Source of the DNA: Candidatus Kaiserbacteria bacterium CG10_big_fil_rev_8_21_14_0_10_47_16
GTDB lineage: Bacteria > Patescibacteriota > Minisyncoccia > Phycocordibacterales > UBA918
Assembly (NCBI GenBank): GCA_002773395.1
Contig: PFBI01000003.1
Span: 1,027-43,508 of the forward strand
Direction: 5' to 3'
Length of the DNA: 42,482 nt
Below are positions 1-3,004 of this stretch, one piece after another (within the stretch, counting starts at the first letter, position 1; each line of letters begins with the position of its first letter). The notes beneath the pieces are model-generated. The model searched no databases. It saw only the letters and a list, made by a program, of their open reading frames with translations, and was not told the origin of the DNA. Both the position numbers and the translations under genes were made by a program.

Positions 1-1615
<1,615 letters not shown>

Positions 1616-2112
1616 AATGCTATACATCGCTTTCGCAAATATTTAGATTCCTTACGTAAATGCTGTACACCGCTGTACAATTTTTGCGTATCACAAACTC
1701 TACAATCTGTGATACATGAGTGTTTGTTCACTCCACATAAAATACGTAATGTGGAAATGAACGGTTGCACTGTTCTCTATCGATTTGCGTGTGCAAACTA
1801 GATGAACAGCACATGTGTGTTTGTTCGTTTGTCGGGGACGAAAAGACCCTGCCGAAGCATAAATCTAAACCCGACAAACGTACCTGTTGTTTCTAATTCC
1901 AAAGAATTAGAAACCCACCTATGTGCGTCGAACACATAGGATTTTTCGAGACGGGACCTTATCAATCCCGTCTCTAAGATATGCGATTATCAAAGTTCGC
2001 ATGTTCCCCTGAATATGAAGTCTAAAAAAACCGCGATTTCGCGGCACAGAAATTCGCAATGCGAGGATCTGATCCGCTACGATTTCTTTTGATTCATACT
2101 CATAAACACGTG
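1616..2112 (-). other. Long pre-23S leader with ten tandem hairpins
   Basis: This non-coding stretch lies between the 23S promoter and the mature 5' end. Inverted repeats follow one another without overlap: 1664-1679, 1688-1715, 1718-1733, 1733-1754, 1765-1796, 1804-1826, 1827-1879 (10-bp perfect stem, 33-nt loop), 1890-1913, 1918-1940 and 1948-1974 (9-bp perfect stem). The loop at 1837-1869 reads, on the plus strand, like the conserved domain V segment of 23S rRNA (GGACGAAAAGACCCT at 1836-1850), so the transcribed leader carries its complement. Leader function in processing or assembly is inference. I see no gene here. Confidence 0.7.
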
Positions 2113-2118
2113 CCCGCC

Positions 2119-2146
2119 ATTCTATAGGAAACCAAAATAAAGTCAA
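2119..2146 (-). promoter_or_regulatory. sigma70 promoter of the 23S rRNA gene
   Basis: On the minus strand there is TTGACT (2141-2146), a 16-nt spacer, and TAGAAT (2119-2124). A GC-rich stretch (GGCGGGC) follows the -10, as in stringently controlled rRNA promoters. Transcription would start near 2112, about 500 nt before the mature 23S. The promoter sits just beyond the terminator of the preceding gene, so 23S is an independent transcription unit. Confidence 0.75.
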
Positions 2147-2311: not shown

Positions 2312-3004
2312 TTAACCGTGATGATGATCTACTACCTCTCGTTCCACCTTTGAGAGATATTTGCTCGCCATATCCCGACCCCCAAGACCGAATGCTAACC
2401 CGAATGCAAGTGAGGTAGCAAATACAAATCCTGCAAAGAGAATCTGTACAAGCATTGGTGCAATTTCAAGCTGACTCAAGGCCGCAAGTACTGCGAAAAC
2501 AATAATTGCGTACCGCGCAATCGCTCCCAGCATTTCTGCTGCACGGAAACCTGCTGCACGCGCACCCGCCTCCACACTCGCGCTTACCACTTGTGCAATA
2601 ATCATTGCGCCAAAAATAATAAGTACCGCAACAATAACGCGTGGCAAGTAATTGAGCACGACGTCTCTGAAGAAGACCGTGATTTCACCAAGATTGAGAA
2701 TGTCGAGTGCTGCGACAATAAACACAATGATGACAAACCACTTTACCAATGAACCGACAAACTGACCGGGTTTAAAGTTGTACCCAGCACGCTTTGAGAT
2801 CACACCGATACCCGCTGCGGCAAGTGCTTCATTTGCTCTCGAAACTACAAAAAGTTTTTCAATGAGTCGTTTGAGCACATCGGCGATAATCCAACCAATG
2901 ATGACCACTAAGAGTGCGATGATCATCTGCGGAAGGAAGAGAATAATGTCGCTCCATAGATTTCGAAAGGACATCTCCAGCACAGTAATTAAATTTTGTT
3001 CCAT
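2312..3004 (-). CDS. Mechanosensitive-channel-type conserved TM-helix membrane protein
   Basis: 230 residues with four to five hydrophobic helices (about 23-45, 85-107, 120-142, 165-185, 188-205). It ends in a Gly/Ala-rich helix with AFGLAFGLGGRDMA (about 200-213), which resembles the pore-lining TM3 of MscS and the conserved TM-helix repeat family (CmpX-like). The beta domain of true MscS is missing: the protein stops about 17 residues after the pore-like helix and ends with three histidines. A role in osmotic adaptation is inferred from family only. The start follows a TATAAT box by 6 nt with no room for an SD, suggesting a leaderless mRNA. It is a single-gene unit with its own terminator. 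Confidence 0.75.
   Translation of the reverse strand: MEQNLITVLEMSFRNLWSDIILFLPQMIIALLVVIIGWIIADVLKRLIEKLFVVSRANEALAAAGIGVISKRAGYNFKPGQFVGSLVKWFVIIVFIVAALDILNLGEITVFFRDVVLNYLPRVIVAVLIIFGAMIIAQVVSASVEAGARAAGFRAAEMLGAIARYAIIVFAVLAALSQLEIAPMLVQILFAGFVFATSLAFGLAFGLGGRDMASKYLSKVEREVVDHHHG

What the first reader, a model, noticed from the sequence alone, without database searches (positions are those of the whole stretch)
1827..1879. Pre-23S leader hairpin whose loop is antisense to the 23S peptidyl-transferase segment
Directly seen: a perfect 10-bp stem (GTTTGTCGGG/CCCGACAAAC) holds a 33-nt loop which, on the plus strand, reads GGACGAAAAGACCCT followed by GCCGAAGC. The transcribed minus strand therefore carries the complement. 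Established: GACGAAAAGACCC is the near-universal bacterial domain V sequence around A2058/A2059. Inference: the leader of 23S may base-pair with its own peptidyl-transferase ring during assembly (a built-in folding guide or quality check), or the copy may be a fossil of an inverted rRNA fragment.
Basis: partly seen in the sequence, partly recalled or inferred. Interest (0 to 1): 0.72.

Follow-up and report, generated by a model that had tools for sequence, protein, structure and literature searches.

The report
23S leader hairpin antisense to ribosome core
In a large group of tiny uncultured bacteria (Parcubacteria), the RNA made just ahead of the large ribosomal RNA carries a conserved hairpin and a short neighbouring box that are complementary to the heart of that same ribosomal RNA, so the precursor probably helps fold its own catalytic centre.

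Summary
On the minus strand, 234-246 nt ahead of the 23S 5' end, a hairpin carries GGGUCUUUUCGUC (window 1849-1837). It is a perfect 13-nt antisense of this genome's own 23S GACGAAAAGACCC (PTC ring strand and start of H74), which lies just outside the window. All 37 leaders examined from the same family carry the hairpin. The stem changes freely but stays paired, while the antisense segment has at most one change. In 127 leaders from other families of the order, GGGUCUUU is the most over-represented 8-mer. A second over-represented 8-mer, GCAGGUAA, is complementary to 23S UUACCUGC, 20 nt upstream of the first target, and follows the hairpin at a preferred distance of 22-28 nt. Among leaders' top 8-mers no other group has a conserved 23S complement, except one belonging to the ordinary leader-trailer stem. 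Covariation with variant 23S is significant but modest: permutation p=0.005, with GC-content and phylogeny caveats and several failed predictions. Rfam has no match. Best reading: a cis-acting, two-box antisense element that transiently pairs with the 5' strand of H73 and the PTC strand during 50S assembly. Base pairing is likely; the chaperone role is inferred.

The parts
1..1613 (-). 5' part of the 23S rRNA gene (continues beyond the window to the contig end)
   Evidence: Rfam RF02541, 1199.6 bits, model 1-1539
2119..2146 (-). Promoter-like site of the unlinked 23S gene (TTGACT, 16 nt, TAGAAT)
   Evidence: Consensus scan, 10 of 12 matches; about as many expected by chance in this region; position fits between the upstream gene's terminator and the leader
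2024..2045 (-). Intrinsic-terminator-like hairpin inside the leader, before the boxA-like element
   Evidence: GCCGCGAAATCGCGGTTTTTTT; similar arrangement in relatives
1981..2000 (-). boxA-like element GCGAACTTTGATAATCGCAT
   Evidence: Read from sequence; TTTGACAA/TTGACAAC are among the most over-represented leader words in the order
1880..1886 (-). Box 2: CAGGUAC, complementary to own 23S GUACCUG just upstream of the PTC segment; immediately 5' of the hairpin
   Evidence: motif group GCAGGTAA/CAGGTAA found de novo in other families, complement at 23S ref. site 2064
1870..1880 (-). 5' strand of the outer stem (CGUUUGUCGGG)
   Evidence: 11 bp, covarying across the family
1850..1859 (-). Small inner hairpin UGCUUCGGCA with UUCG loop (variable in relatives)
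1837..1849 (-). Box 1: GGGUCUUUUCGUC, perfect antisense of own 23S GACGAAAAGACCC (A2058-C2064 region)
1826..1836 (-). 3' strand of the outer stem (CCCGACAAACG)
1614..1688 (-). Leader strand of the ordinary leader-trailer (H1) processing stem
   Evidence: Inverse match, 73% identity, to the 23S trailer on contig C2:15194-15264

Best explanation
The element is a conserved cis-acting part of the pre-23S leader with two antisense boxes. Box 1 ((G)GGUCUUU, extended to UUUUCGUC in this family) sits on the 3' side of a hairpin. Box 2 ((G)CAGGUAA) sits at the base of that hairpin: on its 5' side in this family, on its 3' side in other families. Together they are complementary to 23S UUACCUGC...GACGAAAAGACCC, i.e. 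the 5' strand of helix 73, the PTC ring strand A2058-C2063 and the start of H74. Proposed mechanism: while RNA polymerase is still transcribing domain V, the leader, held near by the boxA antitermination complex or the leader hairpins, pairs with this strand and keeps it from misfolding. Its true H73 partner lies about 560 nt (plus introns) further downstream; when that is made, it displaces the leader, which is cut away with the leader-trailer stem. Shown: structure, conservation, complementarity, adjacency of the two targets. Supported: pairing, by partial covariation. Inferred: timing, displacement and the chaperone role.
For: Exact 13-nt complement in the own 23S. Outer stem of 5-13 bp (mostly 10-11) with four or more pair types at seven of its nine inner positions, while box 1 is invariant in 35 of 37 family leaders and has one change in two. 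Genome-wide scan of 23S nt 1-2165 for 9-nt leader complements: PTC site in 36 of 123 loci against a mean of 1.5, with 10 the maximum for reversed leaders. De novo words in 127 other-family leaders: GGGTCTTT 42 vs 3.6 expected, GCAGGTAA 20 vs 2.2. Of the 21 top 8-mers, only box 1 (131/133 genomes), box 2 (61/133, 20 nt away) and the leader-trailer word have a conserved 23S complement. Box 1 to box 2 distance clusters at 22-28 nt. Compensatory cases: G110 23S GGAAAG with leader CUUUCC, while sister G155 has GAAAAG with CUUUUC; G098 CAGAAAG with CUUUCUG; N262 and N276 (the genomes of loci L262 and L276) CGGAAAG with CUUUCCG, predicted blind; box 2 UUACCCGC with GCGGGUAA in G154, UUCCUGC with CAGGAA in G115, G200, N234, N212. 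Permutation test of duplex energies p=0.005. Duplex -23.3 kcal/mol; freeing box 1 costs about 3.7 kcal/mol.
Against: Covariation is incomplete. N232 (G156), N212, N234, N254 and G142 have C opposite A2057; G671 has U opposite G2057 (wobble only); G488 keeps only the core; most variant-23S genomes of the second blind test had no box 1 at all. Hand-counted Fisher test for C opposite G2057 or the CAG form gives p about 0.01, uncorrected for phylogeny. GC content may mimic covariation (reversed-leader control p=0.06). Box 2 alone is within noise in the 8-nt scan, and its tests are p=0.02-0.09. In this family box 2 precedes box 1, the wrong order for one continuous antiparallel duplex. Box 1 is missing from more than half of the other-family leaders examined. 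No link with intron content. No experiment.
Confidence: 0.6

Rival explanations
1. A protein-binding leader hairpin, for example part of the rRNA antitermination signal next to boxA (a boxB/boxC-like element or a second boxA, since UCUUU(GA) resembles boxA), whose complementarity to 23S is a coincidence.
For: The hairpin in other families follows a boxA-like TTTGACAANTNAAT within tens of nt. Some copies read GGUCUUUGA, close to boxA. The invariant core shared by all families is only about GGUCUUU, and a 7-mer has roughly a 0.18 chance of a complement somewhere in 23S.
Against: A separate boxA is present. Two independent leader words have complements 20 nt apart in 23S, roughly 1e-4 by chance. 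The family consensus extends to 12-13 nt of exact complement. Some compensatory changes occur.
Confidence: 0.25
2. The leader fragment acts in trans after processing, as an antisense RNA against the PTC of free 50S precursors or mature ribosomes, to tune or pause translation or to feed back on rRNA synthesis.
For: The target is the catalytic ring strand, and the leader also holds a terminator-like hairpin before boxA, so it may be a regulated leader.
Against: The PTC strand is buried in mature 50S (general knowledge). One leader is made per 23S, which is poor stoichiometry for regulation. No sign of a separate promoter or terminator for the hairpin.
Confidence: 0.1
3. A chance match or a fossil inverted rRNA fragment.
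For: A 13-mer against 23S from a 500-nt leader is not impossible by chance (roughly 0.03).
Against: Conserved in all 37 family leaders with a covarying stem and the top de novo word in 127 other leaders; only two short boxes match and the rest of the loop is variable.
Confidence: 0.02

Closest known systems
U3 / U8 snoRNA-type pre-rRNA chaperoning (eukaryotes)
   Same: A short RNA held next to pre-rRNA pairs transiently with a conserved strand whose true partner is made later
   Different: Here it would be encoded in cis in the bacterial 23S leader, without box C/D motifs, and directed at H73 and the PTC rather than the SSU pseudoknot or 5.8S-28S
U3-like sequences in the 5' external spacer of bacterial and archaeal SSU pre-rRNA (Dennis et al. 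1997, RNA 3:337; cited in PMC3608112, content from memory)
   Same: Leader-encoded sequences proposed to pair in cis with the mature rRNA
   Different: Proposed for 16S; no 23S/PTC version was found in the papers I could search
boxB-boxA-boxC rrn antitermination leader and leader-trailer helix (E. coli; PMC10250234)
   Same: Same place: boxA-like element upstream, leader-trailer stem downstream; leader elements are known to affect subunit biogenesis
   Different: The two boxes described here are neither boxA nor part of the leader-trailer stem, and are complementary to an internal 23S site
CPR rRNA insertion sequences (PMC11270868)
   Same: Same gene, clustered around the PTC in domain V
   Different: Those are introns inside 23S; presence of box 1 is unrelated to intron content

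Membership tests
Rfam families (release 15) | Match above the curated score of a described RNA family | tested here: not met
   Only LSU rRNA hits in the window; nothing in the leader
Structured conserved RNA element | Stem kept by compensatory changes while its sequence varies | tested here: met
   Four or more pair types at seven of nine stem positions over 37 family leaders, stems of 5-13 bp
Antisense RNA to 23S domain V | Perfect complementarity to the organism's own target, beyond chance | tested here: met
   13 nt in own genome; scan and de novo word tests
Antisense RNA to 23S domain V | Covariation of the antisense segment with variant targets | tested here: inconclusive
   Permutation p=0.005 and several exact compensations, but counter-examples and a GC/phylogeny confound
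U3/U8-like pre-rRNA chaperone | Pairing shown in precursor particles and needed for maturation | not testable with these tools
   Needs probing or genetics
U3 snoRNA | Separate box C/D RNA with C, D and C' motifs | tested here: not met
   Element is part of the 23S leader, with no Rfam snoRNA hit
Intrinsic terminator | GC stem directly followed by a T run | tested here: not met
   Box 1 lies inside the stem's loop; terminator-like GGTCTTTT sites were separated (4 of 64)
boxA antitermination element | Conserved linear boxA recognised by NusB-S10 | tested here: not met
   Distinct boxA-like element lies upstream; binding itself not testable
Leader-trailer (H1) processing stem | Pairs with the sequence after the 23S 3' end | tested here: not met
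   That stem is formed by window 1614-1688 with the trailer; the hairpin stem has no consistent complement in relatives' trailers, though the own trailer holds GUUUGUCGG by inspection

The most novel reading that the evidence does not exclude
A whole bacterial order encodes, in cis in its pre-23S leader, a two-box RNA guide that base-pairs with the H73/PTC strand during co-transcriptional 50S assembly. This would be a bacterial, self-encoded counterpart of snoRNA chaperones, in lineages reported to lack many assembly factors.
Probability: 0.5. Interest if true: 0.9.

Novelty: new variant of a known kind. Interest (0 to 1): 0.77.

Why it matters
How long-range helices around the peptidyl-transferase centre avoid misfolding during synthesis is an open question. 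CPR bacteria have about half the usual ribosome-biogenesis factors, and Paceibacteria are reported to lack Der (PMC12641178). A built-in RNA guide would be a simple replacement and would extend the snoRNA-chaperone principle to a bacterial pre-rRNA leader. It also supplies a defined, mutable RNA-RNA contact that can be tested in vitro without culturing the organism.

Tried and rejected
(1) A third antisense site: leader GYGGUU at about -20 against domain III AACCRCAAU looked strongly covarying (A with U 32, C about 0; G with C 20, U 11). The same nucleotides pair with the 23S 3' end in the ordinary leader-trailer stem, so it was not claimed. (2) Box 1 in other orders of the class: most GGTCTTT hits there are terminators. 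(3) Link between box 1 and introns before domain V: none (63% vs 62%). (4) A switch in which the trailer opens the hairpin: present by eye in the own genome (trailer GUUUGUCGG) but not in relatives. (5) Covariation of the nucleotide next to box 2 within the family: none. (6) Second blind prediction on variant-23S genomes: mostly uninformative because box 1 was absent, with one wobble case and failures. (7) Whole-23S family searches at class level failed on the server. (8) No plasmid match.

Full report
Setting. The window's left end is the 5' part of a 23S gene on the minus strand, with its 5' end near 1613. Upstream lies a membrane-protein gene with the mechanosensitive-channel TM helix domain (2312-3004, PF05552), a terminator, a promoter-like site (2146-2119), and about 500 nt of leader that folds far better than shuffles (z=-13). 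16S lies on another contig; the 23S 3' end and 5S lie on contig C2, which may join C4 within 23S. The same membrane gene precedes 23S in many genomes of the order. Named relatives are Kaiser-, Zambryski-, Nomura-, Adler- and Taylorbacteria and similar Parcubacteria. In what follows, G-numbers are genome handles of the searches and N-numbers stand for the genomes of the loci with the same number (N262 = genome of L262).

Observation. Window 1826-1880 (minus) forms an 11-bp stem around 33 nt that contain GGGUCUUUUCGUC. The genome's own domain V, on the same contig outside the window, reads TTAGACGAAAAGACCCCAGG: 13 nt are exactly complementary. The nearby CAGGUAC (box 2, 1886-1880) is complementary to own 23S GUACCUG, a few nt upstream of the first target.

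Conservation in the family. Leaders of 37 genomes were read. Every one has the hairpin; box 1 GGUCUUUUCGUC is invariant in 35 and has a single change in two. The stem is mostly 10-11 bp with different sequences in each genome (four or more pair types at seven of nine positions), the inner hairpin varies in length and sequence, and (C/T)AGGUA stands just before the stem in nearly all. So sequence is held in box 1 and only pairing in the stem. The 23S target is invariant in the family members that could be read, so no covariation can be expected there.

Other families. In 127 deduplicated leaders of other families of the order, a hypothesis-free word count puts GGGTCTTT first among 8-mers (42 observed, 3.6 expected), with boxA-like words, terminator and promoter words, a leader-trailer word, and GCAGGTAA (20 vs 2.2). 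After removing four terminator-like sites, 57 leaders have a GGTCTTT site, nearly all enclosed by a local stem (a few sites, such as those 15 nt before the 23S start, are probably incidental). Box 2 follows box 1 at a preferred 22-28 nt, right after the closing stem (...GACAG-GCAGGUAA).

Target. Scanning 23S nt 1-2165 for 9-nt perfect complements of the leader singles out the PTC AAAGACC (36 of 123 loci; mean over positions 1.5; reversed leaders reach at most 10 anywhere). Taking the 21 top leader words, only three groups have a conserved complement in 23S: box 1 at reference 2084 (131 of 133), box 2 at 2064 (61 of 133), and ATTGTGGT at 1328 (46 of 133). The last belongs to the leader-trailer stem. 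Two independent conserved words whose complements lie 20 nt apart are unlikely by chance: about 0.04 for the first times about 0.001 for the second falling within 30 nt (my arithmetic).

Covariation. Genomes with a changed target were compared with their leaders. Good cases: G110 (23S GGAAAG; leader CUUUCC) against its family mate G155 (GAAAAG; CUUUUC); G098 (CAGAAAG; CUUUCUG); N262 and N276 (CGGAAAG; CUUUCCG), both predicted before the 23S was read. For box 2: UUACCCGC with GCGGGUAA in G154, and CUUCCUGC with CAGGAA in four of five genomes. Failures: N232, N212, N234, N254 and G142 (C opposite A2057), G671 (U opposite G2057, wobble), G488 (core only), and most variant-23S genomes of the second blind test, which had no box 1 at all. 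A permutation test on duplex energies over 99 non-family genomes gives p=0.005 for the whole target and for box 1 and p=0.09 for box 2; reversed leaders give 0.06 and reverse-complemented leaders 0.47. Hand count for C opposite the variant 23S: 4 of 6 against 5 of 39, Fisher about 0.01, without phylogenetic correction. I treat covariation as supporting, not proving.

Energetics. The box 1 duplex is about -23 kcal/mol; holding box 1 open in the hairpin costs about 3.7 kcal/mol. Pairing does not require opening the outer stem, because box 1 lies in the internal loop.

Mechanism (inferred). The target is the 5' strand of H73 (2043-2057), the PTC ring strand 2058-2063 and the first bases of H74 (E. 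coli numbering, general knowledge). Its H73 partner (2611-2625) is transcribed about 560 nt, plus introns, later. A leader box that covers this strand until the partner exists would act as a placeholder. Introns in CPR 23S cluster around the PTC (PMC11270868), but box 1 presence does not follow intron content. CPR genomes have about half the usual assembly factors and Paceibacteria lack der (PMC12641178), which makes RNA-based help plausible. In E. coli, leader elements already matter for subunit quality (PMC10250234).

Novelty. No Rfam family, and no paper in the searched library describes a pre-23S leader antisense to the PTC. Precedents of principle are U3/U8 snoRNAs and the U3-like leader sequences proposed for 16S (Dennis et al. 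1997, cited in PMC3608112). I therefore call it a new variant of a known kind.

Limits. Most genomes are metagenome-assembled; no transcription data; phylogeny was not modelled; leader positions rely on profile hits to the 23S start.

Noticed in passing
window 2024-2105 (minus strand); also G059, G092, G112 and G115 leaders: An intrinsic-terminator-like hairpin lies in the 23S leader right after the promoter and before the boxA-like element, with an upstream GCGG segment that could pair with its CCGC arm: a possible transcription attenuator of 23S rRNA.
   Followed up: no
leader about -20 to -12 before 23S in many other families: Leader AUUGYGGUU is complementary to domain III AACCRCAAU with a strong A-U/G-C/G-U pattern; the leader-trailer stem explains it more simply, but a double role is not excluded.
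   Followed up: partly
window 2312-3004 (minus) and upstream of 23S in many genomes of the order: A gene for a small membrane protein with the mechanosensitive-channel TM helix domain is syntenic with 23S across the order.
   Followed up: partly
G000 contigs C4 and C2: The 23S is split over two contig ends (model position about 2368 on C4, 2394 on C2), and the 16S lies at the end of contig C1.
   Followed up: no
G000 trailer, L004 about 2160-2200: The 23S trailer holds GUUUGUCGG, which could pair with the 3' strand of the leader hairpin stem; not conserved in relatives.
   Followed up: yes
G571 contigs C23 and C24: Two different 23S genes (GACGGAAAG and GACAGAAAG) in one assembly, perhaps contamination.
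   Followed up: no
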